Assembly: GCA_964036045.1 (NCBI GenBank)
Contig: CAXIWF010000588.1
Coordinates: 1 to 64,000, forward strand
Source of the DNA: Eutreptiella sp. 'Long Island Sound 2002'
Taxonomy: Eukaryota > Euglenozoa > Euglenophyceae > Eutreptiales > Eutreptiaceae
Length of the DNA stretch: 64,000 bases
Direction of reading: 5' to 3'
The notes below the pieces were generated by a model. It did no database searches. It was not told the origin of the DNA and saw nothing but the letters and a program-made list of their open reading frames with translations. A program made the translations under genes and the position numbers. Shown here in pieces: positions 16,665 to 58,752 of the stretch (within the stretch, counting starts at the first letter, position 1; each line of letters starts with the position of its first letter).

Positions 16665-19400
16665 ATGCGGCTGGTGGCGGTATCCACAAGTTTGCCGGAT
16701 GTTGAAATCACAGGCATAGAAATCGACTCCCGCCGTGTGGCGCCGGGCAACTTGTTCGCGGCCCTGCATGGTGCCGCCACGGACGGCCGATCCTTCATCC
16801 CGCAGGCGCTTGAGAAGGGCGCCACCGCGATATTAGGCTCTGGCTTGACGGCGTACGATTGTGGATCCGCAGCGGTGATCGACACCGACGATCCGCGGGG
16901 CTTACTGGCGAAGATTGCCGCCGCGTTCCACCAACCCACCGTGCCCACGGTGTTGGCTGTCACGGGGACGAACGGCAAAACCAGCGTCACTCAGTTCGTC
17001 CGCCAAATGCTCACGCACCTGGGCCACAAATGCGCGAGCTTCGGGACGTTGGGCGCCGTTCCCGAGGGCGTCGTCGAGCTGCCGAGCATGACCACGCCCG
17101 ACGTCGTGTCCCTCCATCGCGCGCTCCAAGCGTTCGCCGAACGGGGCTTCACGCACGTGGTCCTGGAGGCCAGTTCCCACGCGTTGGATACCCGTCAGAA
17201 ACGGTTGGACGGCGTGCGCTTTGCTGCGGCGGCGGCCACGAACCTCACGCAGGACCACTTGGATTTCCACGGGACGCTCGAGCAGTACGCGGCCGCCAAG
17301 CAGCGGCTGTTCGATGACCTGTTGGACGGCCCCGCCGTTCTGCACGAGGACGCCCTCGGGCACTTCCGGGTCGACAAGGCGGTGGTGGTCGGGCGCGGCG
17401 GGGCCGCGGATCTCGTTGTGGGGCACGAGCGGGCCCCCGCCGGCGCGCGGGTGTCCCTCCGCTTCAACGGGGAGGTCGCCCGCGCCGACGTGCCCGTGTG
17501 CGGGGCGTTCCAGGCCGACAACATCGGCGTGGCGGTGGCCCTGGTGATGAGCTGCGGCCACACGTTCCCCGACGCGTGCGCGGCGGTGCGCGCGATCACC
17601 GTCGTGCCCAGCCGATGCGAGGTCGTGGCCGCCGACCCCGGCACGGATCGTCGCGTGATCGTGGACTTCGCGCACACCCCCGACGCGCTCAACGCCGTCA
17701 TCGACACGCTCGGCCGGGGCCCCGCGCTGACGGTGGTGTTCGGCGCCGGGGGGGACCGGGACGCGACCAAGCGCGCGCCCATGGGGCGGGCCACGCGGGG
17801 CACCCACGCGATACTGACCGACGACAACCCGCGCACCGAAGCCCCCGAACTGATCCGGGCGGACGTGTTGGCCGGGAACCGGGACGCCGTTGAGATCGGA
17901 GACCGCGGCCTGGCCATCCAGCGGGCCGTTCAGTCCGCGCGCGCGGGCCAGACCGTCGTCATCGCGGGCAAGGGCCACGAGACGGGGCAGATCATCAACG
18001 GTCACCAGCTCCCGTTCAGCGATGCGGCGGTGGCTCGCGCCGCTGTGGACCGGTTCTGGTTCCACAAGGACCCGCTGTGGTCCAGCGCGGAGGTGGAGGC
18101 CGCGACTCAGGGCGTCGCGTGCGCTCCGTTCACGGTCACGGGCACCGTCCACATCGACAGCCGATTGGTCCACCGCGGCGACCTGTTCGTGGCGATCATC
18201 GGCCCGAACAACGACGGCCACGATTTTGTTGGGGAGGTGTTCCGGAGAGGCGGTGTCGCGGTCGTGTCACGCCCGGTCGAGGGGCCCCACGTGCTGGTGC
18301 AGGACACGCTGCAGGCGCTGAAGGGCCTTGCCGTTGCGGCGCGGGGGCGGCTGCGCGCAACCGCTCGGGTCATCGGTGTGACCGGGTCCGTGGGCAAGAC
18401 CACCACAAAGGCCATGCTGGCGCACGGCCTGGCAGTGGTGGGCAAGACGCATGCCACCGAGGGCAACCTGAACAGCCAAATCGGGGTGCCCCTCACTCTG
18501 GCGCGCATGCCCCGCGATACGGAGCATGCGGTCATTGAAATGGGGATGGACAGGGCCGGGCAGATTCGCGTGCTGACGGGACTGGCACGCCCGACCGTTG
18601 CGGTTGTCACGGCCGTATGCGCTGTACACTCGGAGAGCTTTGACAGTGTCGAAGCCATTGCTCGGGCGAAGGCGGAGATTTTTGAAGGCCTGGTCGAGGG
18701 AGGGCTGGCTATCATTCCTCAGGATAGCCCCTACCGAGACATCTTACGCCCTCCCACTGAGACCCTCACGGTTGGGCACGGCGACGGGGCTGATGTCCGC
18801 ATTACCGACAGAGTCTGGGATGGCACGTTTCAGTCGGTTACCCTCAGCAATGGATGTGCTTTGAGGCTCTCTAGCATGAAACGCGTCAGCGCGTATGGTG
18901 CGGCGCTAGTGGTCGCGGCGTTACGTCACCTTGGTCCGGAGGAGCTTAACCGGGCCCTTGCCTCGCTTCAAGCGTTTAGAACTCCTGCGGGCCGTGGTGC
19001 TGTACTGAAACGACGTGATGGATTGGTTGTCATCGATGAAAGCTACAACGCATCGCCAGCTGCCACGAAGGCCGCTCTCGCTGACTTTAAGGATGTGCCT
19101 CTCACAGTCGTGCTGGGCGACATGCTCGAGCTGGCCGATCCTACTGAGCAGCACGCCGCGCTCGTCCATGACATTACCGACCAAATGACCGTGCACACGG
19201 TGGGCACACTCTCCCGGTCCCTCCACGACGCTCTGCCCGCTGAACGGCGCGGGCAGCACTTCGACAGTGTCGAGGCGGCGATCGAGGCGCTGCCCGAGAG
19301 AATTCCGCTGTCGCAGCCCATTTTGATCAAAGGGTCCAATGGGATCGGGCTCTCGAAACTGGTGGACACCCTGACACGCCGCAGGACCCCAGCGCCCTGA
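16665..19400 (+). CDS. murEF: MurE-MurF fusion: UDP-MurNAc-tripeptide ligase / D-Ala-D-Ala-adding enzyme
   Basis: One intronless frame of about 911 residues encodes two complete Mur ligases. The MurE half (about 1-465) has P-loop T-G-T-N-G-K-T at 100-106 and the carbamylated Lys in Y-A-A-A-K (Lys212). It has D-D-N-P-R at 386-390; D-N-P-R is the known signature for meso-diaminopimelate rather than lysine. The MurF half (about 471-911) has P-loop T-G-S-V-G-K-T-T at 573-580 and the ATP-linked Lys motif A-R-A-K-A-E. It ends in G-S-N-G-I-G-L. Together they would add diaminopimelate and then D-Ala-D-Ala to UDP-MurNAc-L-Ala-D-Glu. A GTG precedes the ATG at 16665 and a TGA lies just upstream. The gene is far richer in GC than its surroundings. 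No transit peptide is visible. Confidence 0.95.
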   Translation: MRLVAVSTSLPDVEITGIEIDSRRVAPGNLFAALHGAATDGRSFIPQALEKGATAILGSGLTAYDCGSAAVIDTDDPRGLLAKIAAAFHQPTVPTVLAVTGTNGKTSVTQFVRQMLTHLGHKCASFGTLGAVPEGVVELPSMTTPDVVSLHRALQAFAERGFTHVVLEASSHALDTRQKRLDGVRFAAAAATNLTQDHLDFHGTLEQYAAAKQRLFDDLLDGPAVLHEDALGHFRVDKAVVVGRGGAADLVVGHERAPAGARVSLRFNGEVARADVPVCGAFQADNIGVAVALVMSCGHTFPDACAAVRAITVVPSRCEVVAADPGTDRRVIVDFAHTPDALNAVIDTLGRGPALTVVFGAGGDRDATKRAPMGRATRGTHAILTDDNPRTEAPELIRADVLAGNRDAVEIGDRGLAIQRAVQSARAGQTVVIAGKGHETGQIINGHQLPFSDAAVARAAVDRFWFHKDPLWSSAEVEAATQGVACAPFTVTGTVHIDSRLVHRGDLFVAIIGPNNDGHDFVGEVFRRGGVAVVSRPVEGPHVLVQDTLQALKGLAVAARGRLRATARVIGVTGSVGKTTTKAMLAHGLAVVGKTHATEGNLNSQIGVPLTLARMPRDTEHAVIEMGMDRAGQIRVLTGLARPTVAVVTAVCAVHSESFDSVEAIARAKAEIFEGLVEGGLAIIPQDSPYRDILRPPTETLTVGHGDGADVRITDRVWDGTFQSVTLSNGCALRLSSMKRVSAYGAALVVAALRHLGPEELNRALASLQAFRTPAGRGAVLKRRDGLVVIDESYNASPAATKAALADFKDVPLTVVLGDMLELADPTEQHAALVHDITDQMTVHTVGTLSRSLHDALPAERRGQHFDSVEAAIEALPERIPLSQPILIKGSNGIGLSKLVDTLTRRRTPAP

Positions 19401-20480
19401 GCCCGGTTGTACGTGGTCTGATGTGCGGCAGATGGCCGATCCTTCTGCACTGAATCCCGCCGGGTTTCCTGGTGAGATTGTTTCGCTGCGCTCGGGATTC
19501 CAAACTCAGGTGGTGCTCTGAAGCCGGCTCTGCTTGCATCCCGCATCCTCGCTTTGAGTCATGGCAGCTGTTACTAGCCCGGCGGTGGTCGATGACGATT
19601 TCCTGGGTTGGGTTTTGTTTTCTCCATGCACGCCGCTGTTGTTCTCAGCCTTCAGTCTTTCTTGCGATCTACGCGCACACTGGCGTGCCCCAACGGCCGG
19701 TAGGGCTCCTCCCTGCCGGGCTTTCTTACCACTTTCGCAGATATGGATCCCCGTCTAGAGGTGAAATACGGAGAAAGGCTGGATTTATGCCTCCTCGTCC
19801 TACCGCCCGCCGGATACCCAGACTGCGTTCCGGGATACGTAATTTAGCTCTGGTTGAGTAATGTGGCTCGGTAAAGGTCCTCCGCGATGGATCATTTCTC
19901 CCTCAGTTGCTGAGCGGCCATATCTGTCAGTACCTGCATCGATCGATGTCTCACGGCTCGTGGGATTGAACCCAAAAGTTTGTTTTCTTTGTGTTTCCCG
20001 TTTCCATCAGTGTATTGTAGGCCGATGATCATCATGCACCAAAGTACCAGCAACACCACAGACACTGTTTCCATTTGGGAGGTTAGGCTGGGGAAGTGAC
20101 CAGTGGCACAAGCTAATGTGCATGCAATATCGTGGACAATGTGCCAACAGAGTTCGAAACGGAGGCGTGCAACTTGGGATTTGGGATTGAGGGGCAGTGC
20201 AATGCATTCCTTGTGTGCTCGTGGGCCTCTGAGGTTTGTGCATGGCATGCCTGGCACATCCCGAATCTGGACCTTGTTGGTGACCATGCCACAGGAACAA
20301 ATGATAGATAGGGTGCACTGCATATGGGTAGCTGTGGTGTGTTGGGTGTAGGGGCAAGTAGGCCTGGATGTGGGGTTTGCCGCATCCTCACAAGCCATGT
20401 TTTTGGTGGCATGGGTATGATTTATTTTAGGCAGCTGATGTGATGATCCGTGCGTGATACCACATCCACAATCTCAGTTG
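19401..20480. other. Region downstream of murE-murF, no intact gene
   Basis: Moderate-GC sequence with only short frames. The one recognisable piece is a - strand retrotransposon fragment near 19890-19970. Confidence 0.5.
19892..19966 (-). pseudogene. Short LINE fragment
   Basis: The - strand translation ends in a stretch close to H-R-S-M-Q-V-L-T-D-M-A. It matches residues near the end of the LINE ORF at 30164-31111 (H-R-S-M-Q-T-L-T-H-V-A and following L-R-E). The match is about 25 residues with no further extension, so this is a relic. Confidence 0.5.
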
Positions 20481-23440: not shown

Positions 23441-23445
23441 TGAGG

Positions 23446-26743: not shown

Positions 26744-28504
26744 ATGCACCACCACTGGAACTGCACCCCAGAACAAGGCGTTGTCTCAACAAGGAGGAAA
26801 GAGGCAGGGGGTTTCGTGGGTTTATGCCTCGAACAATCACGAATGTTCACAAACGAGATGGGTCATCCATCACCACAAACCCATGAAACCCCTGAAGGAG
26901 GGCGCACCAGGGGCTGTCACCCCATATTATGCACCTTCTGCAGAGACGGCCGGTGTCCATGCTCTTCTTCGGACCCCGGGAAACGCCCCTGCCACTTGTC
27001 TGATCGCCTTGTTCAAGCTCCAGGCCCCGCGGTGCCAGAGCAAACTGTCACACTGTGGCCATTCAGCAACGGCCATGGGGCCATCCCATGGCAGGACATC
27101 CCATGGGTGGAGGTCGCCGGGCTCGGTGTCGGGCGATGCTTCACCAGGGCCTCCCTCATGCTCATGAACGCCTCGGCGTTCGAGCTGTACCTCCAGCGCG
27201 TGCACCACGGCAACGTGCTGGCGGCCGGGGTCATGATGGCGTGGATCGAGGCGATCGACACCTTCCTCTCCTTCTGGGTCAACCCGATGAAGACGGCGTT
27301 GGTGGACCGGTACGGGCGGAAGACGTTCATGGTGGGCCCCTTCCTTGGCCTGGCCGGCATCCGGGTCCTGTACACTGCGAAGCCGTCGCACGCCACGTAC
27401 GCCCTGTACCGGACGGCGGTGGTGTTCCTGGGGCACTTCATGGCCAGCTCCGAGATCCTGCTGTGCGACCTGGTGGACCCCACCAGCGACGCCTACACGG
27501 CCATCAGCCAGCCGCTGCAGCAGTGCGCCACGGTCACGGGGCTATCGACGCTGTTCCTCACGCGACTCATCAGCTCGCCGGAGTTTGCGATGTACTTTGC
27601 CTCTGTCTGCACCGTGGCCGCCGCGTTGACAGTGCACTTCACGGTGGCGGAGACCCTGAAGGAGTCGGACCGGCGCCCCGTGCCGTGGGCGCGCATCTTG
27701 ACCAACCCTCTGCACTCGCTTGGGTACTTCGTCAAGTCTCCGGAGCTGCTGCGCTTGCACGTGCTGGCGGCCCTGTGGCACATCGCCCAGACCGCGCTCA
27801 TGGCGCCGCTCCAGCTGTTCCGGCGGCAGGTCTACGGGTGGGGCATGCAACAAGTCGCGGCTCAGAATTTTTACGACCAAATGTGTGACGTGGTGGGCAG
27901 GTTTGGCACGCTCCCTGCGCGGCAGACCCTGGGCATCCGCGGCATGTACTTCTTCGGCAAGGGTTTCTCGGTTCTGTCCGCCGTGCTCAATCTCGTCGCT
28001 CCCGCGGGGTGGATCTGGGTGACGGCCATCCCCTGGGCCTTCCGGTATGATGTTGAAGGCAAGGGCCGCGAGGATGCATACTGGCGCCAGCAGGTGGGGG
28101 TGCCCATGTCCGAGGGGCAGACGGCCCACACCACCAAGATTGCCATCATGCAGTTGTTCGTGCCCTCTGCCTGGGTTAACTTCTATGCAGTGACCTCTCG
28201 GGTGTATCCTCGCACCTTCATCTTGGTGTCGTTGGTGGCCCAGACCGGACTGCTCATCGTGACCCCATTCGTCTGGCCGGACAGTGCAGCCCACAAGCGG
28301 AACAAAGTGACGCTTGCGGTGGAGGCATCGGTCATTGGACTGTATTTCAGTGTAGTGTATTGTGTTGTATTGTACAGTGTTATATTGAGGTACATTGTTC
28401 AGTGCATCGTCGGCTGCTGCAGTGCATTACCATGCACTGGAGCCATGGGAGTAAAAGCAGACAGGGAATATGTCATGAGCATGCAGCAACATCGATGCAA
28501 CTAA
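26744..28504 (+). CDS. MFS-like multispanning membrane transporter
   Basis: The frame contains about eight or more hydrophobic segments separated by short charged loops. After the second comes D-R-Y-G-R-K, the loop signature of major facilitator superfamily carriers (D/R-x-G-R-R/K). The recognisable protein starts near the Met codons at 27158-27164; the first ~130 codons of the open frame look non-coding, so an upstream intron or later start is likely. The frame runs into a satellite unit at 28350 and stops at 28504, so the native end may be near 28345, where TTTCAG could be a splice acceptor. The substrate is unknown. A partial copy of its 3' part lies at 43002-43470. It is not a Mur enzyme, but sits between murE-F and murB. 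Confidence 0.6.
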   Translation: MHHHWNCTPEQGVVSTRRKEAGGFVGLCLEQSRMFTNEMGHPSPQTHETPEGGRTRGCHPILCTFCRDGRCPCSSSDPGKRPCHLSDRLVQAPGPAVPEQTVTLWPFSNGHGAIPWQDIPWVEVAGLGVGRCFTRASLMLMNASAFELYLQRVHHGNVLAAGVMMAWIEAIDTFLSFWVNPMKTALVDRYGRKTFMVGPFLGLAGIRVLYTAKPSHATYALYRTAVVFLGHFMASSEILLCDLVDPTSDAYTAISQPLQQCATVTGLSTLFLTRLISSPEFAMYFASVCTVAAALTVHFTVAETLKESDRRPVPWARILTNPLHSLGYFVKSPELLRLHVLAALWHIAQTALMAPLQLFRRQVYGWGMQQVAAQNFYDQMCDVVGRFGTLPARQTLGIRGMYFFGKGFSVLSAVLNLVAPAGWIWVTAIPWAFRYDVEGKGREDAYWRQQVGVPMSEGQTAHTTKIAIMQLFVPSAWVNFYAVTSRVYPRTFILVSLVAQTGLLIVTPFVWPDSAAHKRNKVTLAVEASVIGLYFSVVYCVVLYSVILRYIVQCIVGCCSALPCTGAMGVKADREYVMSMQQHRCN

Positions 28505-29328
28505 ACTTTTTTTATATATATTCAATATCCAGTGAAGGTATATGAATGAGTGTAGTGTATTGTGTTGTATTGTACAGTGTTATCTTGGGGTACATTGATC
28601 AGTGCATCAAAGCCTGCTGCAGTGCATTACCATGCACTGGAGCCATGGGAGTAAAAGCAGACAGGGAATATGTCATGAGCATGCAGCAACATCGACGCAA
28701 CTAACCTTTTTTTATATGTTTTCAATATCCGGTGAAGGCATCGGTCATCGGACTATATATGAGTGTAGTGTATTGTGTTGTATTGTACAGTGTTATCTTG
28801 AGGTACATTGGTCAGTGCATCGTCGGCTGCTGCAGTGCATTGCCATGCAGTGGAGCCATGGGAGTAAAAGCAGACAGGGAATATGTCACGAGCATGCAGC
28901 AACATCGACGCAACTAACCTTTTTTTATATGTTTTCAATATCCGGTGAAGGCATCGGTCATCGGACTATATATGAGTGTAGTGTATTGTGTTGTATTGTA
29001 CAGTGTTACCTTGAGGTACATTGTTCAGTGCATCGTCGTCTGCTGCAGTGCATTACCATGCACTGGAGCCATGGGAGTAAAAGCAGACCGGGAATATGTC
29101 ATGAGCATGCAGCAACATCGATGCAACTAACCTTTTTATATATATTTTCAATATCCAGTGAAGGCATTGGTCATCGACGATTTATGAGTGTAGTGTATTG
29201 TGTTGTATTGTACAGTGTTATCTTGAGGTACATTGATCAGTGCATCAAAGCCTGCTGCAGTGCATTACCATGCACTGGAGCCATGGGAATAAAAGCAAAC
29301 AGGGAACATGTCATGAGCATGCAGCAAC
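28350..29328 (+). repeat. Tandem satellite, 200-213-bp unit, five copies
   Basis: Units begin with GTGTAGTGTATTGTG at 28350, 28550, 28763, 28975 and 29188, giving periods of 200-213 bp. The first overlaps the 3' end of the MFS gene and the last is cut by the LINE at 29328. The first unit may be the original 3' UTR, later amplified. More units are at 43331-44640. Confidence 0.9.
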
Positions 29329-30101
29329 CACTTATTATCATTGCCCGTGTAACTGGGCCACAGACCTCATATAGAGGTGAGCTGCAGGGTGCAGCACTCG
29401 TCACTGCACCTGCCCTCGCAGAGCCTGGTGACACACTGACCATGGACAACCAAGCAGTTGTTCGCTGGGCTCCCAGACCTCCTCACCGGGAGTGTGCTGA
29501 CATGGACCTACGGCAGCAGGTCGCGGAACATCTGGCTACCCGACGAATACCCTTTTCCTGGGTCCCCAGCCACCGCAACCTGTCTGACGCCACAAGTCCA
29601 GACGACCGCGAGACAATACTACGCAATGATGAGGTTGACAGGTGGGCAAAGACAGCAACTGCCCTCCCCCTACCTCCATGTGAGCCTACGGACCCGTCCG
29701 CAATTGTCATTTGCGGTGGTATCGCACCCACCCCAGCAAAGAAATGGGTACTCCAACGCCGCCGAACATTTGGGTTTCCTGGTGTTCATTGGGTCTCCTG
29801 GCTGCCCTTGAAGGGCACCAGGCGTATGCTGTGGCTTCGCTGGCTCTGGGGAAATGTACGGTGGGAAGGATGTGCCCCCCCCTGGGAAAAGACAACCAGT
29901 CTGTGCCCCCTGTGTAACACGTACCATGGCAGTACAGCCCAACTGCGGCTCATCCAATGTCCCACCTGGAAACTTGCCTTCCGGAAAGCCTGGCTCGGTA
30001 ACTGGGGGGACTGGACTGAATATGCCACGTCCTGGTATGATCAGGCGACGCACAACGACCTTGTGCATATCTCTCGCTTGCGGATCCCCAATCTTTTGTA
30101 G
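29328..30101 (+). CDS. LINE ORF: RNase H (partial) and zinc-finger RT-associated domain
   Basis: About 257 residues belong to the element; upstream codons of the same frame are satellite. RNase H features are S-Y-R-G-E-L-Q-G (catalytic Glu), T-M-D-N-Q-A (Asp), W-V-P-S-H (His region) and N-D-E-V-D-R-W-A (final Asp). The N-terminal strand with the first Asp is missing. About 90 residues later C-P-L-C-N ... C-P-T-W resembles the zinc-binding domain found after LINE reverse transcriptases. The RT itself was lost by 5' truncation. Confidence 0.7.
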   Translation, partial: PLIIIARVTGPQTSYRGELQGAALVTAPALAEPGDTLTMDNQAVVRWAPRPPHRECADMDLRQQVAEHLATRRIPFSWVPSHRNLSDATSPDDRETILRNDEVDRWAKTATALPLPPCEPTDPSAIVICGGIAPTPAKKWVLQRRRTFGFPGVHWVSWLPLKGTRRMLWLRWLWGNVRWEGCAPPWEKTTSLCPLCNTYHGSTAQLRLIQCPTWKLAFRKAWLGNWGDWTEYATSWYDQATHNDLVHISRLRIPNLL

Positions 30102-30163
30102 ACGGCCTGCCTCGAACACTGCGGCCTGCTCTGCGAGAGCGAGTAGCGTACCATCAGTACCAC

Positions 30164-31111
30164 TTGCTTCTGTCGGTAACGTCCCTACGTGGTGAATTAC
30201 CCATGCCGCCCCGATGCACTGATTCTTCTGTCCCCACTGCGTCCATTTCTGCCTGGTTTGGTTCGCTACGCTGTAGGAAACCCCAACCAAACCCGACACC
30301 AAAAAACCTGTGGGAACAGGTACACTTCTCTCCTGCGACAAGTGGCTCCGACCCAGACACACCCACCCCAAAACCGGCGCCCACCCTTCTGGTTACACGC
30401 CGGATAAAAAAGCTGCTGACCCAAACCCCTACCTCCCAGAATCGGTCCAAGGCCGTCCGCTACCTCACCCAGCACCCTGGTACACCCCACACGGCTGATC
30501 TGAAAGCTTTTGCATCCTTGCACTACGTGCATTCCCAGGCGCGTTTCACCCCGACCTGCCCCCCCCACCATGCACGAAAGTTTCCGGCTACTGCAATCGC
30601 GGATTACAAGCAGTTTGCCCACACCCTCATGCGGCACCGACGGTGGGACATGGAGTTAGGCAGCCGTTTCCTACAGTATGCCCAATACACAGAAGCCAAC
30701 CTCCTGCAGCAATTTTACAATCGCATGTGGCGATGTTACAGCAATTCACGCACCTCCATTGCCACCTCGCGTCGCCGTATCATCGCCTGGAGGCGCCAAG
30801 GGACTCTTCTCCTTGACCACTATGACACACTGATGCAAACATGCCACACCAGGAAAGAAAAATTTTGGCTTCAATCCCTACGCACCTTGAGACATCGGTC
30901 AATGCAGACACTCACACACGTTGCCACTCAACTACTAAGGGAAAACTGGTCAGCTGCGGAGGACCTGTTCCGAGCTGCCGTTGCCACCGTACATCACCTC
31001 AAAAAGCGCTCCCGGCCCTATGACACTGCAAACCCCAACCCAAAACGGATCTACACGCCCCGCACTACCCCTCAACCCTCCGAGTCCGAGCCGCTGTGGC
31101 CTAATCCCTGA
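30164..31111 (+). CDS. LINE C-terminal ORF of unknown function
   Basis: The 315-residue frame directly follows the RNase H/zinc-finger ORF. It has a Pro/Thr-rich first third. Then comes a basic, probably helical region rich in Arg, His and Gln (about residues 130-285), ending in Arg/Lys/Pro. A related piece is at 19892-19966, so this ORF belongs to a repeated element. No domain is recognised; nucleic-acid binding would fit its charge. Confidence 0.5.
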   Translation: MLLSVTSLRGELPMPPRCTDSSVPTASISAWFGSLRCRKPQPNPTPKNLWEQVHFSPATSGSDPDTPTPKPAPTLLVTRRIKKLLTQTPTSQNRSKAVRYLTQHPGTPHTADLKAFASLHYVHSQARFTPTCPPHHARKFPATAIADYKQFAHTLMRHRRWDMELGSRFLQYAQYTEANLLQQFYNRMWRCYSNSRTSIATSRRRIIAWRRQGTLLLDHYDTLMQTCHTRKEKFWLQSLRTLRHRSMQTLTHVATQLLRENWSAAEDLFRAAVATVHHLKKRSRPYDTANPNPKRIYTPRTTPQPSESEPLWPNP

Positions 31112-31653
31112 AGACAGGGACCAACCCCTCTACAGACTTGACATCTGACACTGGATTCTTGCACTTGGCGGTGGTGTCGGCTGCGCGCCAGTTCCTATTT
31201 TTTCACCAACCCATGGCAGGTTAGCCCCCCTGTGGCGTCCTCCCCTTGTCTATTTTTTCCCCCACAGGTGTGGAATGCCACTCCCCAGCGCGCCGTAACC
31301 CTGCCTGTGTTCTACTTCCTATTTTCGCCCCCCTCTGTGTGTCACCAATCACTCAACAGCAGTGCGCTCTGCCCCTGGCGAATAGTGACCCTTTGTGCCT
31401 GATTGACCAATCGTGCCTGAATGTCATCCCCCTCCCACTCTCATAGTGTATGACATGCAACCTGCTGATTCACCTCGGCCTTCAATCTTCACTCCGCTGT
31501 CTTTTTCAGCCCACAGTCATTGTGCCTCTCGCACACTGGGAAGCCTACGGGCGTGGCAGTCTCCCACTGCATAACCTGGTTTCAGACTCAGCTCATCCTC
31601 ACTACGTGTCAGATCCGCTACCACAGTCATTTGTGGGATCATCGTAGCACTGG

Positions 31654-31750
31654 ACAGCTCTGAACCTTGATCCCGAGGGGTCACCTCGAGTACTGTGAAG
31701 TGAGCAGGCTACACCAGCTCATCTTGGTCTGAGCCAAAAAAAAAAAAAAC
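31654..31750 (+). repeat. SINE-like unit with poly(A) tail
   Basis: A ~95-bp sequence beginning ACAGCTCTGA and ending GAGCC plus an A-run also occurs at 53802-53900. There it is flanked by a target-site duplication. Here it forms the 3' end of the LINE region. It is either a SINE or the shared LINE 3' end that a SINE borrows. Confidence 0.65.
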
Positions 31751-31753
31751 AAG

Positions 31754-32377
31754 TGTCTTCAAGGAAGTGCTGGGGCAGGGGCAGGCGACGGGACAAGGTC
31801 AGCCAATGATCATTACACGCGTTCGGTACCCCCCGCACAAAGACTCGCGCCGAGTGAACACCTGCTATGGAGCCATTCAGAAGGTATTGGCTGAGAAAGA
31901 AATGGAGGCAAGCCCACAGGGCATCAGCAAGGCAGTCATTGCCATCCGTAAGCCGCGGCTACCTGATCCTGCAGAGATGGGCAGCTGTGGTTCATTCTTT
32001 AGGACCCCTCTGGTAAACGCAGGTCTCCGTGCAGCGATTCAGGCACGTGGCCTGGTGCTCTCTTTTACCGTGCCGACAGCGACGCCGTGACAAAAATTCC
32101 AGCCGGTTGGCTGATAGAGCAGTGTGGGTGGAGAGGGAAGGTTGTGGGGCGCACTAGGCGTTACGACCGAAATGCTGCAGTCATCGTGAACTTCGGTGGG
32201 GCCGCAGGGGCCGAGATTTGGGCCCACGCCCAAGCGGTGGCAAATTCAGTTGCGCAGCGTTTTGGCGTTTTGTTGAGTCCCGAGGTCAACATCAGTGAGG
32301 GTCCGCGGCTCTGCCCCAGGCGAGTGGTCGCTGTACAGACGTTGTGGGGGCTTATTGATTTGCAAACCACAGCTTGA
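31754..32377 (+). CDS. murB: UDP-N-acetylenolpyruvoylglucosamine reductase, C-terminal half, frame break
   Basis: The translation begins S-V-F-K-E and M-I-I-T-R-V, as in the MurB sequence after the FAD domain. It continues A-I-R-K-P-R-L-P-D-P and G-S-C-G-S-F-F with the catalytic Ser (near 31992). It then shifts by one base near 32055-32070 to A-G-W-L-I-E-Q-C-G-W and ends S-P-E-V-N-I with the catalytic Glu at 32282-32284. MurB reduces the enolpyruvyl group to lactyl, giving UDP-MurNAc. The FAD-binding N-terminal ~190 residues were not found upstream, where the LINE ends. A G-T-G-A-G-G after V-N-I could be a donor site; otherwise the frame ends at 32377 with a non-homologous tail. The gene is spliced from distant exons or broken. 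Confidence 0.85.
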
Positions 32378-36622: not shown

Positions 36623-38077
36623 ATGTTGCGGGTCACGGGAGGCGGCCCTCTACGCGGCGAGGTCGCCATCTCCGGCGCCAAGAACGCGGCCCTCCCCATC
36701 CTCTACGCGGCCATCCTGACGCCCCGGCCCGTGCACCTCTCCAACGTCCCCCGCATCGTCGATGTCCTGACGACCATCCACATCCTGGAGGCCCTCGGCG
36801 CCCGGGTGGACCTCACGGGGGCCACATCGTTGCGGGTCGACGGCCGCGCGATCGGACGGTACTGCGTCCCGGCGCACCTCGGCAAGCGGCTTCGGGCCTC
36901 CATTTGGGCGCTGGGGCCGTTGGTGGCGCGCTTCGGCGAGGGGAAGGTCGCGTTCCCGGGCGGGTGTCCCCTCGGGGCCCGGCCCGTCGACCTCCACATC
37001 GCCGGCCTGCGGCAGCTCGGCGCCCACGTCGCGGTCACCGACAACGCCATCCAGGCGACGTGCGCCGGGAGGCTCAAAGGCGCGCGCGTCGTGCTGGACC
37101 TCGTCAGCGTGGGCGCGACCATCACGATCATGTGCGCCGCGGTCCTGGCGGAGGGCACGACGACGGTGGACAACGCGGCCCGGGAGCCGGAGGTGGCGGA
37201 CACCGCCGCGTTCCTCAACCGACTCGGGGCCCGCGTCAGCGGGGCCGGCACCGGGCGCCTCGTCATTGAAGGCGTCCGCGAGCTCCGCGGCGGGGCGCAC
37301 TCCGTGATCCCGGACCGCATCGAAACGGGCACGTACCTCATGGCCGCGGCGGTGTCCGGCGGCTGCGTGGCGTGCCGGGGCACCAGCGCGGCGCTGCTTG
37401 GCTCCGTGCTCGCGACGTTCCGGGAGGCGGGCGCGCTCATCACGACCACCGAGGACTCCATCACGCTGGATATGGCGGGGCGGCGGCTCCGTGCGGTGGA
37501 TCTGACCACCGCGCCCTATCCGGGCTTTCCCACGGACTTGCAGCCGCTTTTCGTGCTGCTGAACGCCGTGGCAAACGGCGCGGGCGCGATCACCGACACC
37601 ATTTTCAAGGACCGCTTCCAGGTCGTGCCGGAGCTCCAGAAGATGGGGGCCGATGCCGTCTTCGACGGTGCGGCAACGGTGCGGGTGACGGGCGGGACGC
37701 TCTCGGCGGCTTGTGTGAGCGCGCGCGACCTGCGTGGGGCAGCCAGCCTGGTGATCGCCGCCTGCGTCGCCACGGGGGTAACCACCGTGACCGGCTTGGA
37801 GCACCTGCATCGAGGGTATGGGAATTTCTTCGAATGCCTGAGTGCATTGGGGGCTCAGTTCGCGTGGGTCACGCATCTGGAGACGCTGGGCCCGCCCGCA
37901 GCCAAGTGCCGGGGCCTACCGCTGCAGGCCCTGCTTGGGAAGGCAGAGCAGTGCAACGGATGTGCGGGGCGGTGCAGGGAGTGCGGTCCAGGCAAATGGT
38001 GTGACGTCAGAAGTGGGTCGGTCTGCGGTGTGACGTCAATGGGTAGAAGCCCCATGGACTATTGCTCCTTAATATGA
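36623..38077 (+). CDS. murA: UDP-N-acetylglucosamine 1-carboxyvinyltransferase
   Basis: The ATG at 36623 gives the standard MurA N-terminus, and a GC-rich coding signature begins there. Lys20-Asn21 (S-G-A-K-N), the fosfomycin-target Cys115 in P-G-G-C-P (same number as in E. coli MurA), the Asp of P-T-D-L-Q and Arg of L-R-G-A-A-S are all present. MurA transfers enolpyruvate from PEP to UDP-GlcNAc, the committed step of the pathway. The wording R-A-S-I-W-A-L-G-P-L-V-A-R-F-G is close to proteobacterial MurA. The family normally ends near 37870; here about 65 extra residues follow (rich in Cys/Gly), so a missed intron or readthrough is likely at the 3' end. The frame is also open from 36317, but that part looks non-coding. 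Confidence 0.95.
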   Translation: MLRVTGGGPLRGEVAISGAKNAALPILYAAILTPRPVHLSNVPRIVDVLTTIHILEALGARVDLTGATSLRVDGRAIGRYCVPAHLGKRLRASIWALGPLVARFGEGKVAFPGGCPLGARPVDLHIAGLRQLGAHVAVTDNAIQATCAGRLKGARVVLDLVSVGATITIMCAAVLAEGTTTVDNAAREPEVADTAAFLNRLGARVSGAGTGRLVIEGVRELRGGAHSVIPDRIETGTYLMAAAVSGGCVACRGTSAALLGSVLATFREAGALITTTEDSITLDMAGRRLRAVDLTTAPYPGFPTDLQPLFVLLNAVANGAGAITDTIFKDRFQVVPELQKMGADAVFDGAATVRVTGGTLSAACVSARDLRGAASLVIAACVATGVTTVTGLEHLHRGYGNFFECLSALGAQFAWVTHLETLGPPAAKCRGLPLQALLGKAEQCNGCAGRCRECGPGKWCDVRSGSVCGVTSMGRSPMDYCSLI

Positions 38078-43422: not shown

Positions 43423-43553
43423 GCCATGGGAGTAAAAGCAGACAGAGAATATGTCACAAGCATGCAGCAACATCAATGCAACGAACCTTTTTTTTATATA
43501 TTTTCAATATCCAGTGAAGGTATATGAATGAGTGTAGTGTATTGTGTTGTATT

Positions 43554-49086: not shown

Positions 49087-50454
49087 ATGAGGAAGAATGC
49101 ACATGTCATGGGAATGGGCGTCTCTGGTAATGCAGCAGCCCGCTTGCTTCGACGCCATTCGTGGTGTGTCACGGTAAGCGATTCCAAGGACAACGACGCC
49201 CTGCGGCAGCAAAAGGAATCCCTCGCTGCACAGGGCATCACGGTCCTTCTGGGGACCGCCTTCACCCCCGACGCGGCCCTAGACCTCGTCGTCGTGAGCC
49301 CGGGCGTCCCGTGGGACGCCCCACCGTTGGTCCGGGCACGGGAGCTCGGGGTGCCCACCGTCGGGGAGCCGGAACTGGCCTGGCGCTTCCTCAAGGACGT
49401 GCCGTGGGTGGGCATCACCGGCACGAACGGCAAGACCACCACCACCGCCCTCATCGCGGCCATCTTCCAGGCGGCCGGGCTGCACGCCCCCGCCTGCGGC
49501 AACATAGGCCACCCCCTATCGGAGGTGGCGATTGCCGCGGCCGATGGCCGCCGCCCGGACTGGGTCGTCGCGGAGCTGTCCAGCTACCAGATCGAGGGCA
49601 CCGCCGAGCTCGCGCCCCGCGTCGGCGTGTTCACGACGTTCACCCCGGATCACCTGGAGCGGCACCGGACAATGGACAACTACTTCCGCGTCAAGGCCGC
49701 CCTGCTGCACCGGTGCGACGTGCGGGTGCTGAACGGCGACGATCCGGAGCTCCGGAGGCGGGCCGGCGCGGAGTGGCCCGCGGCGGTGTGGACCAGCGCG
49801 CAGGGCCCGGCCTCGGTCCCGCGGAACGCGGACCGGGGGGTCTATGTGGCAAGCGGTTGGGTGGTGGCCGCCGGGGCCCGGGTGGTGCGGGCCGACGCTT
49901 TGCGGGTGCCGGGGGGGCACAACCGGCAGAACTTGCTGATGGCGGTGGCGGCCGCGGTGGCGGCGGGCGTCCCCGCGGAGGCGATCGCGGAGGCGGTCGC
50001 GGGCTTCGAGGGCGTGCCCCACCGCCTGCAGACGGTGCGCCGCGGCGGCGGCCTCGCGTTCGTCAACGACAGCAAAGCGACGAACTACGACAGCGCCCAA
50101 GTGGGGCTGGACGCCTTCGAGGGCCCCGTCATCCTCATCGCCGGGGGGCAGGCGAAGGAGGGGACCGACAGCGCCGGGTGGCTCGGGGCCGTCCGGCGCA
50201 GGTGCGCGGGGGTCGTGCTGATCGGCCGGGACGGGCCGGCGCTCGCGGGGCTGCTCCGGGGCGCCGGGTTCGCGGACTGCGAGGTGGCGCAGGACATGGG
50301 GCAGGCGGTGCGCCGCGCCGCGGAGTGGGCGGGGCAGAAGGGGGTGGCGACGGTGCTGCTCAGCCCGGCCTGCGCGAGTTTCGATCAGTACCGCAGCTTT
50401 GAGCACCGGGGCGAGCATTTCCAGCAGCTCTGCCTCGAATTGCCGGGTGTCTGA
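49087..50454 (+). CDS. murD: UDP-N-acetylmuramoyl-L-alanine--D-glutamate ligase
   Basis: An intronless frame of 455 residues, the normal MurD length. It has the N-terminal glycine-rich G-M-G-V-S-G, P-loop T-G-T-N-G-K-T-T-T at 111-119, E-L-S-S-Y-Q-I-E, T-P-D-H-L-E-R-H and the carbamylated Lys203 in F-R-V-K. N-D-S-K-A-T-N and the C-terminal L-S-P-A-C-A-S-F-D-Q-Y complete the family signature. The end (F-E-H-R-G-E-H-F-Q-Q-L) reads like cyanobacterial MurD, which would fit plastid ancestry. It adds D-Glu to UDP-MurNAc-L-Ala. No transit peptide is evident. A C-tract element begins 9 bp after the stop. GC content is far above the surroundings. Confidence 0.96.
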   Translation: MRKNAHVMGMGVSGNAAARLLRRHSWCVTVSDSKDNDALRQQKESLAAQGITVLLGTAFTPDAALDLVVVSPGVPWDAPPLVRARELGVPTVGEPELAWRFLKDVPWVGITGTNGKTTTTALIAAIFQAAGLHAPACGNIGHPLSEVAIAAADGRRPDWVVAELSSYQIEGTAELAPRVGVFTTFTPDHLERHRTMDNYFRVKAALLHRCDVRVLNGDDPELRRRAGAEWPAAVWTSAQGPASVPRNADRGVYVASGWVVAAGARVVRADALRVPGGHNRQNLLMAVAAAVAAGVPAEAIAEAVAGFEGVPHRLQTVRRGGGLAFVNDSKATNYDSAQVGLDAFEGPVILIAGGQAKEGTDSAGWLGAVRRRCAGVVLIGRDGPALAGLLRGAGFADCEVAQDMGQAVRRAAEWAGQKGVATVLLSPACASFDQYRSFEHRGEHFQQLCLELPGV

Positions 50455-54184: not shown

Positions 54185-54713
54185 ATGAGTCATTCCGGCG
54201 TCGCGTCTGCTGCTGCGCCGGGCCGCACGCCCGCCGCGCAGGCGGCGCTCCGCCTCATCCAGTCGGGCCAACCCATCGCGGCCCACTTCATCGGCATTTG
54301 CGGCGCGGGCATGAGCGGGATCGCGAAGGTGTTCCTGCAGCAGGGGCACACCGTCACCGGCAGCGACTTGGCCCGCTCCGGCGCCGCCGCGGAGCTGGAG
54401 GCGCTGGGCGCGGTGGTCCACATCGGGCACGCGGCCAAGCACTTGGGGCGCCCGCACGTGGTGGTGTTCACCGGCGCCATCCCGTCCGGCAACCCCGAGT
54501 ACCTGCGGGCGCAGCAGGAGGGCCTCCCGGTCCTGCACCGCTCGCAGGCCCTGGCCCTGCTGCTCTGCAACCGCACGGCCGTTGCGGTGTCCGGCAGCCA
54601 CGGCAAGACCACGTCCACGGCGATGGTGGCGGTGGCCCTGCGGCATCTCGGGGCGGACCCCAGTTTCGTGAATGGCGGTGTGGTGATGGATGTGGGCTCG
54701 AGCGCGGCTTCGG
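54185..54713 (+). CDS. murC: UDP-N-acetylmuramate--L-alanine ligase, exon 1
   Basis: The first ~176 residues of MurC: a ~33-residue Ala-rich leader, H-F-I-G-I-C-G-A-G-M-S-G-I-A, T-G-S-D-L, and the P-loop S-G-S-H-G-K-T-T at 136-143. The exon ends at a G before GT at 54714. Joined to 58333 this restores S-A-A-S-G-S-G-R-M-F-V-I-E-A-D-E-S-D, which matches the family across the junction in phase. MurC attaches L-Ala to UDP-MurNAc, the first amino acid of the stem peptide. The leader might be part of a targeting signal, but it is short and lacks the usual Ser/basic bias. Confidence 0.92.
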
Positions 54714-54730
54714 GTTGCTGCTCCTCCCAT

Positions 54731-55106
54731 GTACCCCCCCCCCCCTTTGTATTAGCCACGCCCTTGCCCAAGCTACAGTAGGCGTAGGGACCTCATTCAT
54801 TTGGTACCTAATTTGATTCGGTCCCCAATGTAGTGCAGCCACATAAGACATGGGTTTGGTGACGAATTTGCCAATCAGATGGGGTCATGGACACATTTGT
54901 TGTGAGTATTTGCCCACTTGAACCCACAGAGCTCTGATTTTGGGGATATTTGTGCATCATATTCCCCTTTCCTGCACCAGCTCACCGTGCAATCTTGTCT
55001 TTCTGAACCAGCGCGCAAGCTACGGCCTTGTCCAAGCTACAGTAGGCATGGGGACCGTATTCATTTGGGACTTTTGCGTAGCTATTACAATGGGGGGGGG
55101 GGGCAC
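54731..55106 (+). mobile_element. ~370-bp C-tract/G-tract element in murC intron 1
   Basis: It starts GTAC, a C-run and GCCACGCCCTTGCCC, and ends TAGCTATTACAAT, a G-run and GCAC. The flanks GTAC and GCAC may be a 4-bp target duplication with one change. It is homologous over its length to 50463-50819. It begins 17 bp inside the intron. Confidence 0.7.
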
Positions 55107-55345
55107 CCTCTGCTTCGTCTCTGCCCCCCTCCACACACGCACTATCACCGTCGAGGGGAAGGCCGAAGGAGGGCTATGCTTAGCAGCCCCAACACGGTGG
55201 GAGCAGTAGAATGCAGCTCGCATACGCGGGCGCCAGCGATTATATTGATCAGGTAGGGCACGATGGACAGCGGGTTTCCGCACAGGCAACCATGCCACTG
55301 TACTCACCAGCCAACAACCCACGCATCGACCAGGGGTACATACGA

Positions 55346-55458
55346 TAGTGGAGCACCCCAACCAAGAAGGGAGCACGATGACTGTGCAAGAACCACTGCA
55401 CTAACGGCTGAGATTGTCTGTGGCGGGGACATTCAGTCAATTGATACCGACCATTGAA
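55346..55458 (+). repeat. Dispersed ~115-bp repeat (copy 3)
   Basis: TAGTGGAGCACCCCAACCAA through GGCGGGGACATTCAGTC and ACCGACCATTGA, as at 35374-35490. Confidence 0.75.
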
Positions 55459-55459
55459 C

Positions 55460-55800
55460 CCCTAGTAACCACCTAACCGCCACCGACCAACCACCTAACA
55501 ACCACCGAACAACCACCACCAACCATCTACCAACCACCAACCGCCTAACAACCACCTAACAACCACCACCAACCGCCTACAACCACCTAACAACCACCAC
55601 CAACCACCTACTGACCATCCAAAAACCACCCACCAACCACCGACCAACCACCTAACAACCACCGAACAACCACCACCAACCATCTACCAACCACCAACCA
55701 CCTGACCACCACCTAACAACCCCGTAACAATCACCTAACGGCCACCACCAACCACCGAATAACAAACGAAAAACCCCCTACCGACCACCTACCAACCACC
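55460..55800. repeat. ACCACCTAACAACC minisatellite
   Basis: About 340 bp of imperfect repeats of ACCACC, AACAACC and CTAACAACC words. A longer-period copy is visible (the text near 55477 recurs near 55645). Confidence 0.9.
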
Positions 55801-55961
55801 TGGTAGCCACCTAGTCGGATGCAGCCCGACAAACGGGCGCCGCAACATTATTGATCTGGTCCTCCACGGAAACATCAGGTTACAGCAGGTTACAGCACAG
55901 ACCACTAAAACCACTGTACTTACCAGCCAGTGCCAGGATCCCTCATCCGATGTACATATGA

Positions 55962-56075
55962 TAGTGGAGCACCCCAACCAAGAAGGGAGCACAATGACTG
56001 CGCAAGAACCACTGGACCAACGGCTGAAATTGTCTATAGCAGGGACATTCAGTCATTCGATACCGACCATTGAAC
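55962..56075 (+). repeat. Dispersed ~115-bp repeat (copy 4)
   Basis: Same family as 35374-35490. The flanking sequence before it (AACCACTG, TACTTACCAGCCA, GATCC) is also related to that before copy 3, so copies 3 and 4 may lie in a larger duplicated unit. Confidence 0.7.
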
Positions 56076-56139
56076 ACCCCCGCACACGCACACGCGCACA
56101 CACCCACACACACCCTGGGGGTGGGTGGGGGAGTGCTGT

Positions 56140-56290
56140 CGGAAATGCATTGTACGACGCGTCGGGGCGTCGTACAAGGCGTCGGGGCCCGACGCGTCGG
56201 GAGCGTACGACGCGTCGTACAGTGTCGTACAAGGTGTCGTACAGCACCAACACCGTACGACACAGTACGACATAGTACGACCGCCCTCCC
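56140..56290. repeat. Palindromic GTACGACGCGTCGTAC cluster (block 1)
   Basis: CGACGCGTCG, GTCGTAC and GTACGAC words recur densely in both orientations. A second block lies at 56576-56680. The two flank a tandem of CAGAGTGTTGCTTAA plus G-run units and a GTCTAC repeat. Confidence 0.8.
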
Positions 56291-56311
56291 CCTCTAGGCG
56301 GGTAAACGATG

Positions 56312-56450
56312 GCAGCGGACCGTCTTGGGGGAAGGGGGCCTTCGGCCCCCTTCCCAAATATTGGCACTTCGCGTCTACAACATGCCGACAGTGTCTACAA
56401 TTAGCAGGCCGCGTCTACCTGTGGTGCACAGTGTCTACAGACCCCAGACC
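56312..56450 (+). repeat. GTCTAC-rich dispersed repeat (copy 3)
   Basis: A hairpin of G-run and C-run around CTTCGG is followed by GTCTACAACATGCC, GTCTACAATTAGCA and GTCTACAGACC. It matches the copies at 48190-48475. Confidence 0.7.
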
Positions 56451-56459
56451 GCCCTCCCC

Positions 56460-56680
56460 CTGTGCAGAGTGTTGCTTAATAGAAGGGGGGGGGGCAGAGT
56501 GTTGCTTAAGAGAGGGGGGGGGGGGGGCAGAGTGTTGCTTAAGAGAGGGGGGGGGGCAGAGTGTTGCTTAAGACACTGTACGACGCGTCGTACAGTGTCG
56601 TACAAGGCGTCGGGGCCCGACGCGTCGGGGATGTACGACGCGTCGGGAGGTGTCGGGGCCCGACGCGTCGTAAAATCCCT
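56460..56680. repeat. GCAGAGTGTTGCTTAA + G-run tandem, then palindromic block 2
   Basis: Four units of about 31-38 bp, each GCAGAGTGTTGCTTAA followed by AGAGG and a G-run, span 56463-56575. They lead into the second CGACGCGTCG palindrome block. Confidence 0.8.
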
Positions 56681-57155
56681 ATTTCGACAGTAGTGGGGTG
56701 GGGGGGGGCGACGTACACAAACACACACCCAGAGGGACGACGTCCAAGGGTGAGAGATTGCACACAAGCGGGAGGGCAACCGGTGTGCAGGGCTGGAGGG
56801 GTGTGTGTGTGGGGGGGGGGGGGGGGTTGGCGCATCGGGGTGTGGCGTTGCAGGAGGATGCAGCAAATGCCTCGGAGGTGGCGGGGATCCCTGCCTGAAA
56901 AAGTGGTGCAGTGAACAGGTAACCCCCCCCCGCCTTGCGGAAGCACCGCCTTGTCCAAGCACCGGGACCCGGTCTGACCGTCGTTTTTCTAACCGCAGTT
57001 TTTATGGTCAGAAACTTAACAGAACGTGATTGTGTGCCGATTGTAGAGGGAAACAGGGGCTGTGTCATGTTTGGGATGAGTCCCCCTGCTCATAACAACA
57101 TTAATTTACGCTTGCTACTGCACCCCGCTGCTGTTTGTTTTGATGGGATTTTCAG

Positions 57156-57509
57156 TCATGACTCATGCCGTTCCTCATGGCTTGGCTGGTACCGCGCGTC
57201 GCACCGCCTTGTCCAAGCACCGGGACCGGATAGTGGCTCGGTTTCTACCATTGGTTCCAACCCCAGCTCGTCCCACTCCGCGACCCTGCGCCGCTTGGAT
57301 AGCGGCAACAGATTGTTTGGGTGTAGTTCTCTCCCCCTCTCCGCGAGCGCATCTGCCGCCTCGTTCCCCGGCACCGCCAAATGTGAGGGTACCCATCGCA
57401 GTCGTACGCCCCCACCCGCGGACTCCCGCAGCCACAGGATTGCCTCCCACAGGTCCCGAGGATTCGGGGGCGGGGACGTCGGAAGACGAAGAGGTGTTGT
57501 CCGTGTCAT
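57156..57509 (-). pseudogene. RNase H C-terminal fragment, - strand
   Basis: The - strand frame gives D-L-W-E-A-I-L, W-V-P-S-H-L-A-V-P-G-N-E-A-A-D-A-L-A, the last third of an RNase H domain with its His and final Asp. It then reaches L-G-L-E-P-M, which corresponds to the L-D-L-E-P-L of the intact ORFs. The first two thirds of the domain are missing. It lies within the GTAA-flanked transposon. Confidence 0.65.
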
Positions 57510-57670
57510 CAGCAGAGCTGTCCGGGGGCGGGTTCTCCACTGATGTCAGTGATCGGGCACGGGAGAGGGCGCAGGAGTTTGGCAACATGGGGGTGTGGGA
57601 CACAGATTACAGTACGGATGTCAGTGACAGCCGGAAGCGTAAGGGCAGGAGGGTAATCAAGACTTCCTGA
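57510..57670 (+). pseudogene. Detached STDVS tail, + strand
   Basis: The + strand frame gives F-S-T-D-V-S-D and again Y-S-T-D-V-S-D after an acidic stretch, then a basic end. This is the characteristic C-terminal tail of the RNase H ORFs in this window. Here it lies in the opposite orientation to, and just beside, the - strand RNase H fragment, so the two halves have been inverted relative to each other or come from two copies. Confidence 0.55.
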
Positions 57671-58332
57671 TACGTGGCCTAAAGGCACGTGCCTGACCAT
57701 AAACTAACCGGAGGTGGCGCCAGAGGCGCCTTTCTGGACCGATGGGACAATGTGTGGTGGCGCCTGACGGCGCCTTGCTGGACAGCACGAACAATGTGTG
57801 TCGCGGCTCCGCCGCGTGATACTTGCTGATTGAGGGCATAGGTCTGTCGGTGGGGACCTATTGCTGAACTTTCCACTGTTCTATGGCCAAGCACCGGGAC
57901 CCGGTCTGACCGTCGTTTTCCTGATTTTCCTGGTGCTTGCGCATGGGGGGGGGGGGGGTAATTGACAGCGCTGCGCGTTGTGTGGTGTGGGCATGCGGTG
58001 CACTGGGGCACCCTCTGGGGGGGGGAGGGATGCATTAGAAGGGAAAAGACCGCAGAGGCGGCCCCAGAGGCGGCACCAGAGGCGGTTAGGCAGGCGGTTG
58101 GAGGAGGTTGCCAAAGCGGTTTGGGGGGCGGTTACTGTCGGTTACAAATGCCGTTGAGGCTGGCACTTGGCGTCAGGGGGACAGTGGCTGGGCATAGGCA
58201 GGGCGCCGTGCCGGGGGGGGGGGGGGGCTCCCCCTTCCAATGCATCCCTGGGGGGGGGGGTCCCCACTACCTCTTTCCTCCCCTTGTTCAGCCCCTGGTG
58301 GCGAGGGCTTCGGTCAAACCTCCCGGTGTCAG

Positions 58333-58752
58333 GCTCCGGACGAATGTTCGTTATCGAGGCCGACGAGTCGGACAAATCGTTCCTAAATTACCCGGTGGAC
58401 GTCGCGTTCATTACCAACGTCGACTTTGATCACCCCGACTTCTTCTCCGGCCGCGACGCCTACGAGGACGCCTTCGTGGAGTTCGCGACCGCGGCCCGCG
58501 ATGCCGTCGTCATCTGTTTGGACGACCCCGGCGGGCGGCGGGTCCGCGCCCGCCTCACGCACCGCCGCGTCGTGGGCTACGGGTTCGCCGCGGACGCCGA
58601 CCTGCGGCTTCTGGCGGTGGACGCCAGTGGGCCCGCCGCGTCTGCGGCCGTTTGCTTTGCGGGCCAAGAGCACAAAGTGCGGCTGCGGGTGCCCGGGCGG
58701 CACAACGCCTACAATGCCGTGGGGGCCCTGGCGGTGCTGACGGCCCTGGCAT
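58333..58752 (+). CDS. murC: UDP-N-acetylmuramate--L-alanine ligase, exon 2 (C-terminal domain missing)
   Basis: After the AG at 58331-58332 the frame reads S-G-R-M-F-V-I-E-A-D-E-S-D-K-S-F-L, V-T/I-T-N-V-D-F-D-H-P-D and G-R-H-N-A-Y-N-A-V-G-A-L-A-V. This is the central ATPase domain of MurC up to the hinge before the C-terminal domain. The frame then meets a C-run and stops after P-I-P-Q-G-F-A. The family needs about 150 more residues (A-L-x-x-F-x-G-V-x-R-R-F onward). I find no such exon up to 64000, so it lies beyond the window or is lost. The exact donor is not determined. Confidence 0.9.

What the first reader, a model, noticed from the sequence alone, without database searches (positions are those of the whole stretch)
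16665..58752. All six soluble peptidoglycan precursor enzymes in one 42-kb nuclear region
MurE and MurF (fused), MurB, MurA, MurD and MurC are each identified from catalytic motifs, all on the + strand, in DNA that is otherwise plainly eukaryotic (LINEs, SINEs, satellites, an intron). In plants and algae with plastid peptidoglycan, the mur genes I know of are scattered. A physical cluster of the whole UDP-MurNAc-pentapeptide pathway in a nuclear genome is, to my knowledge, not described. It could be a metabolic gene cluster or a transferred block being broken up by transposons.
Basis: partly seen in the sequence, partly recalled or inferred. Interest (0 to 1): 0.92.

Follow-up and report, generated by a model that had tools for sequence, protein, structure and literature searches.

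The report
Amplified bacterial mur genes in eukaryote
A large, repeat-filled eukaryotic genome carries a repeated 85-kilobase DNA unit holding intact genes for five of the six enzyme steps that make the bacterial cell-wall building block, plus a broken remnant of the sixth.

Summary
(1) MurE-MurF (fused), MurA, MurD and MurC are full-length by profile; MurB is only a frameshifted C-terminal remnant directly behind a poly(A)-tailed repeat, with neutral base composition. So five steps are intact in the unit, not six. (2) MurC is modelled with three exons (GT-AG and GC-AG introns); the third lies just past the window, at contig position 64,583-65,119. (3) The window is part of an 85.365-kb unit seen about 2.3 times over two contigs (103,000 and 97,007 bp; 99.98% identical) of a 2.28-Gb assembly with chromosome-size scaffolds. 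It is a tandem array or an 85-kb circle; I could not decide. Some of the unit's repeats also occur on sampled large scaffolds, so it belongs to that genome and is probably no chimeric join. MurE-F groups with alphaproteobacterial MurE-F fusions on a long branch. MurE-F and MurD have no targeting extension; MurA's start is less certain. Host identity, expression, and MurB, Ddl, MraY, MurG or PBPs elsewhere stay open: whole-genome search answered only once. New variant of a known kind (mur genes transferred to eukaryotes); six paper searches listed no such amplified cluster.

The parts
16665..19400 (+). MurE-MurF fusion gene, 911 aa from ATG, single open frame, DNPR motif (meso-DAP type)
   Evidence: GC3 0.81; 161 of 186 columns conserved in at least 95% of 84 homologues are kept; frame opens 4 codons upstream of the ATG
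26744..28504 (+). open frame, MFS-transporter-like by eye (DRYGRK), no family match and no homologue; its 3' end runs into a 213-bp tandem repeat
   Evidence: one hit only, the window's own protein; GC3 0.88 for 27050-28300; structure model useless (pLDDT 37); the MFS label is my reading
28349..29328 (.). 213-bp tandem repeat, 4.7 copies; related copies at 43002-43557 and 44301-44656
29330..31752 (+). LINE-like repeat (by eye; no Pfam match; 5' limit a guess), 3' end with poly(A) directly upstream of the MurB remnant; its last 103 bp recur at 53801-53904
   Evidence: (no family for frames 28602-30098 and 30041-31108); no target-site duplication found
31739..32374 (+). MurB remnant: C-terminal about 160 residues in two reading frames (31740-32050, then another frame from about 32075), N-terminal FAD part missing
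   Evidence: GC3 0.56 and 0.62 against 0.81-0.92 in the intact genes; no difference between the two unit copies in this stretch
36623..38077 (+). MurA, conserved region 36623-37880, in-frame tail to stop at 38077; Cys in FPGGCPLGARPVDLH. The frame is open upstream to 36308, with another in-frame ATG at 36323 (possible 100-residue extension)
   Evidence: 493 bits, cut-off 392.7; 62 of 68 conserved columns kept; 36323-36622 has GC3 0.63 against 0.90 in the gene and begins with a 40-46-bp repeat seen at four other places; role of the Cys is recalled
49087..50454 (+). MurD, single exon, 455 aa
   Evidence: 387.8 bits, cut-off 211.95; 40 of 42; frame opens 10 codons upstream
54185..54713 (+). MurC exon 1
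54714..58332 (+). MurC intron 1, GT...AG, 3619 bp
   Evidence: inferred from homology
58333..58748 (+). MurC exon 2
58749..64000 (+). MurC intron 2 (GC...AG, 5834 bp, inferred from homology), runs out of the window; exon 3 is at contig C588:64583-65119; holds an RNase H frame at 59811-61193
1028..6618 (+). retroelement: ORF1 and an RT-like ORF with a weak GIY-YIG match, in a zone of inverted repeats that is arranged differently elsewhere in the unit
   Evidence: RT reading by eye

Best explanation
Shown: an 85.365-kb unit of a large repeat-rich eukaryotic genome, present in about 2.3 copies over two contigs, carries intact MurE-MurF, MurA, MurD and a MurC that splices to full length, all on one strand, plus a dead MurB. 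Inferred: a bacterial block of mur genes was taken up, has high GC3 and introns now, was spread out by transposons and was then amplified, as a nuclear tandem array or circle. MurA, MurC, MurD and MurE-F are still under purifying selection; MurB was lost here and is either replaced in trans or the pathway is interrupted. MurE-F and MurD start flush with bacterial counterparts and MurA probably does, so the enzymes most likely act in the cytosol on UDP-sugar precursors, most plausibly feeding an intracellular bacterium or an organelle wall. The last step is the weakest.
For: Family scores over curated cut-offs for MurE, MurF, MurA, MurD and spliced MurC. GC3 0.81-0.92 in intact genes against 0.50-0.67 in three RNase H frames and 0.56-0.62 in the MurB remnant. 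Unit structure: C588:17636-103000 equals C1607:1-85367 at 99.978%, and each contig overlaps itself. Unit repeats found in 3 of 4 sampled 8-kb pieces of the same genome: 1.1 and 0.84 kb at 86-88% (45-Mb scaffold), 0.28 kb at 81-84% (32-kb contig), and 82-84 bp only (201-Mb scaffold); none in the piece from C3. An RNase H frame of the unit has 45 relatives at E<=1e-6 among 8000 scored, up to 99% identity, 39 of the 45 on contigs over 200 kb (that these are the same species is inferred). MurEF groups with 45 fused homologues, SH-aLRT 100. Conserved columns kept: MurA 62/68, MurD 40/42, MurEF 161/186, MurC 67/86. Little or no room for N-terminal extension on MurEF and MurD without a further exon.
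Against: No transcript evidence. MurB is dead here and the other pathway genes could not be sought. MurC departs at 19 of 86 conserved columns, some in the FQPHR-like region. The MurB remnant fits the PRK00046 model best, which does not obviously go with one alphaproteobacterial donor, so a single-block transfer is not shown. MurEF is a flagged long branch, so its place is unsure. MurA may start 100 residues earlier, and 5' exons with targeting signals cannot be ruled out for any of them. The Mur ligase search found no match that I can assign to folylpolyglutamate synthase, which I would expect in a eukaryote, so its sensitivity for split genes is limited.
Confidence: 0.6

Rival explanations
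1. The unit is an 85.36-kb extrachromosomal circle (host-derived, perhaps multi-copy) rather than a chromosomal tandem array.
For: C588 and C1607 overlap themselves by 10.7 and 11.6 kb, the usual look of an assembled circle; a protein record lists the same MurEF on a contig of 85,358 bp, one unit to within 9 bp (only the length was seen); neither contig reaches DNA outside the unit.
Against: C588 (exactly 103,000 bp) ends where C1607 begins, so they look like one 200,007-bp contig cut in two, with about 2.3 copies in line. The left 6.9 kb of C588 is a rearranged version of the place found at C1607 67.8-75.3 kb. A collapsed tandem array would also give a one-unit contig. No replication or read-depth data.
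Confidence: 0.4
2. Dead transferred block: all genes are decaying relics like MurB.
For: MurB is a remnant with neutral composition; MurC has lost 19 of 86 conserved positions.
Against: Stop-free frames of 2.7, 1.3 and 1.4 kb, GC3 far over background, splice sites that restore a 493-aa MurC.
Confidence: 0.15
3. Plastid peptidoglycan pathway as in glaucophytes and moss, merely clustered.
For: Same enzymes; moss MurE also bears a DNPR motif (PMC9434261, passages). MurA could carry a 100-residue N-terminal extension, and MurC has about 32 residues before its conserved part.
Against: Moss MurE has a predicted 62-residue transit peptide, whereas MurEF and MurD frames open only 4 and 10 codons before their ATGs. 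The MurE-F fusion groups with alphaproteobacteria, while moss MurE is reported nearest to Gemmatimonadetes.
Confidence: 0.15
4. Assembly chimera or bacterial contamination.
For: The assembly does hold a bacterial contig with murE-murF and a mraY-like frame (C1494).
Against: The same joins occur in both unit copies; introns in MurC; host repeats inside the unit; C1494 has compact bacterial gene order by eye and is unlike the unit.
Confidence: 0.03

Closest known systems
Nuclear mur genes of plants and algae with plastid peptidoglycan (Physcomitrium patens, Cyanophora, Cymbomonas)
   Same: Eukaryote-encoded Mur enzymes, meso-DAP type MurE motif
   Different: Moss MurE bears a transit peptide (passages of PMC9434261); here a fused alphaproteobacterial-type MurE-F with no room for one in its exon, genes within 49 kb and amplified. 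That they are scattered in plants and algae is recalled.
Host-encoded bacterial wall genes of sap-feeding insects (mealybugs, aphids)
   Same: Bacterial wall genes taken up by a eukaryotic nucleus; idea of feeding a symbiont
   Different: There dispersed single genes in insects (recalled; start of the abstract of PMC9116674 seen); here a five-function cluster in a 2.28-Gb genome of unknown kind
Bacterial dcw (division and cell wall) cluster
   Same: Same-strand murE-murF, murB beside murA, murD before murC
   Different: Block order EF-B-A-D-C here against EF-D-C-B-A in the clostridial locus L037; tblastn with frames of at least 120 aa from 80 bacterial loci showed no further wall gene in the unit; spaced over 49 kb with introns

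Membership tests
MurE/MurF fusion (TIGR01085, TIGR01143, PRK11929) | Score over curated cut-off for both halves | tested here: met
   462 and 411.1 bits against 257.3 and 288.6; the fusion model PRK11929 is not reached, 718.9 against 1023
MurA (TIGR01072) | Score over cut-off and active-site Cys | tested here: met
   493 against 392.7; Cys in FPGGC (role recalled)
MurD (TIGR01087) | Score over cut-off | tested here: met
   387.8 against 211.95
MurC (TIGR01082) | Score over cut-off for the spliced protein | tested here: met
   407.8 against 335.1; the splice is inferred from homology
MurB (PRK00046) | Full-length FAD and C-terminal domains in one frame | tested here: not met
   57.1 and 72.1 bits in two frames against a cut-off of 277
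Complete UDP-MurNAc-pentapeptide cluster | All six soluble enzymes encoded | tested here: not met
   MurB only a remnant in the unit
Plastid peptidoglycan system | Targeting peptides on the enzymes | tested here: inconclusive
   No room in the MurEF and MurD exons; MurA start uncertain; 5' exons cannot be excluded
Full peptidoglycan pathway in the host | MurB, Ddl, MraY, MurG, PBPs elsewhere in the genome | not tested
   The genome search did not answer for PF00905, PF02873 and PF07478 (for example); MraY and MurG were never asked

The most novel reading that the evidence does not exclude
A eukaryote makes bacterial wall precursors in its own cytosol from an alphaproteobacteria-related gene block that is carried and amplified as an 85-kb circle or tandem unit, to sustain or control an intracellular bacterium or organelle.
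Probability: 0.23. Interest if true: 0.88.

Novelty: new variant of a known kind. Interest (0 to 1): 0.72.

Why it matters
Mur genes in eukaryotes are known (as far as I recall) mainly from plastid walls and insect symbioses. A clustered, intron-bearing, amplified set without clear plastid signals would show that a multi-step bacterial pathway can enter a eukaryote, perhaps as a block, and be kept and copied. It gives a direct test case: does the host make UDP-MurNAc-pentapeptide, where does it go, and does the lost MurB mean trans-supply or collapse?

Tried and rejected
Motif and profile searches for MurB N-terminal and MurC C-terminal parts in the window found neither; MurC exon 3 was then found outside the window. 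Spliced-leader probes (dinoflagellate type; diplonemid type; both recalled) had no match in the window with up to 3 mismatches. Viral contig scans with the RT, MurEF and RNase H proteins gave no confirmed relative. The homologue search with the 586-aa ORF returned only the window's own protein, and its structure model was too poor to use. A MurD tree of 35 rows placed it nowhere with support. No target-site duplication was found for the repeat before MurB. Rfam found nothing in the window or in 8 further loci. A diplonemid host was considered; the passages seen do not support it. The published Euglena gracilis assembly does not match: 46 chromosomes of 22.7 to 121.4 Mb (PMC11252322, passages) against scaffolds of 201, 190 and 45 Mb. 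A dinoflagellate host is a hunch from recall only (look of a Ty3-type RT frame in L108; GC-AG and AG|G splice sites). Six paper searches with peptidoglycan terms (82 rows listed, of 91, 71 and 30 papers only 20, 15 and 20 were shown) listed no description of such a cluster. Searches were about the host and about splice sites. Only listings and passages were read, no whole paper.
Full report
Observation. Profile scans place MurE and MurF domains in one frame at 16662-19400, with its ATG at 16665. MurA lies at 36623-37880 within a longer frame and MurD at 49087-50454. MurC begins at 54185; its second exon lies at 58333-58748 and its third at contig position 64583-65119, 583 bases past the window end. 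The introns are 3619 bp (GT-AG) and 5834 bp (GC-AG), and the spliced protein of 493 aa scores 407.8 bits on the MurC model, over its cut-off of 335.1. The GC-AG choice rests on the fit in length and sequence to bacterial MurC, not on transcripts.

MurB. Two adjacent pieces in different frames match positions 175-253 and 258-335 of the 343-position PRK00046 model with 57.1 and 72.1 bits (cut-off 277). The first 175 positions were not found in the window or in the rest of the unit; the probes were 12 bacterial sequences, one E. coli sequence and motifs. A repeat whose last 103 bp recur at 53801-53904 ends in poly(A) directly before the remnant; I take it for a LINE, though its frames match no Pfam family. 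GC3 is 0.56 and 0.62, against 0.81-0.92 for the four intact genes. The two unit copies show no difference there. I read this as a dead gene. A split gene with unseen exons is less likely but not excluded.

Unit. The only answered genome search shows that the window is the start of contig C588 in an assembly of 2,280,300,865 bp in 2205 contigs. It lists 13 Mur ligase matches: 5 on C588, 5 on C1607 and 3 on C1494. C588 has 103,000 bp and C1607 97,007 bp. C588:17636-103000 equals C1607:1-85367 at 99.978% (17 mismatches, 2 gaps); the contigs overlap themselves by 10.7 and 11.6 kb; C588 ends where C1607 begins. Of the 17 mismatches 16 lie between 66.1 and 89.7 kb; the other changes codon 629 of MurEF from Met to Val in one of three copies. 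C588:1-6931 is a rearranged version of a retroelement zone found elsewhere in the unit. A protein record lists the same MurEF on a contig of 85,358 bp. A chromosomal array and a circle both remain open.

Host DNA. Four 8-kb pieces of the same genome were obtained of five asked. Three of the four share repeats with the unit at E<=1e-5: 1.1 kb at 88% and 0.84 kb at 86% on a 44.9-Mb scaffold, 0.28 kb at 81-84% on a 32.5-kb contig, and 82-84 bp only on the 201-Mb scaffold; the piece from C3 shares none. The RNase H frame at 59811-61193 has 45 relatives at E<=1e-6 among 8000 scored, 39 of them on contigs over 200 kb; that these are the same species is inferred. C1494 is a bacterial contig with murE, murF and a mraY-like frame and shows that some contamination exists, but it is unlike the unit. 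The host is not identified.

Origin and function. In a tree of 58 rows (57 of 112 homologues that passed a length filter, plus the window), MurEF groups with 45 fused proteins at SH-aLRT 100, on an end branch of 1.55 changes per site that the program flags as long and of unsure place; the four rows labelled with organism names in that group are Alphaproteobacteria by my own knowledge. The MurB remnant's best model differs from what I would expect of that group, so one donor is not shown. Of columns conserved in at least 95% of homologues, the window keeps 62 of 68 (MurA, 19 homologues), 40 of 42 (MurD, 34), 161 of 186 (MurEF, 84) and 67 of 86 (MurC, 22). The MurEF and MurD frames open 4 and 10 codons before their ATGs, and MurEF starts level with its homologues. 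MurA's frame is open for 105 codons before 36623 and has an ATG at 36323; that stretch has GC3 0.63 against 0.90 in the gene and begins with a repeat, so I prefer 36623. MurC has about 32 residues before its conserved part. Cytosolic action is the simplest reading. Supply of precursors to an intracellular bacterium or organelle is my preferred but weakly supported function.

Known work. Moss MurE carries a predicted transit peptide and uses DAP, and Cymbomonas is predicted to encode a full set of peptidoglycan enzymes (passages of PMC9434261 and PMC5741210). Six paper searches with peptidoglycan terms listed no amplified mur cluster in a eukaryote; three of these lists were cut.

Verdict. A real and unusual transferred cluster, with five of six steps intact in the unit, seen in about 2.3 copies.

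Noticed in passing
window 26744-28504: A GC3-rich frame with hydrophobic segments between MurE-F and MurB returned no homologue except the window's own protein (8000 candidates scored of 5.8 billion); it may be a host transporter.
   Followed up: partly
window 28349-29328, 43002-43557, 44301-44656: A 213-bp tandem repeat that continues from the 3' end of that frame; 28021-28575 is also copied at 43002-43557 at 97%.
   Followed up: partly
window 1-7545 and C588:85444-92296: A zone of inverted repeats and an RT-like element with a weak GIY-YIG match; the element lies in opposite orientation in the two places.
   Followed up: partly
window 7624-10313 and 12081-14770: A 2.69-kb duplication at 99.9% identity, 4.46 kb apart.
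   Followed up: no
window 15354-16060: An 11-bp tandem repeat of 64 copies just upstream of MurE-F.
   Followed up: no
G000:C1494:75001-85000 (L103): Bacterial contig with murE, murF and mraY-like frames inside the eukaryotic assembly, a contaminant or cobiont.
   Followed up: partly
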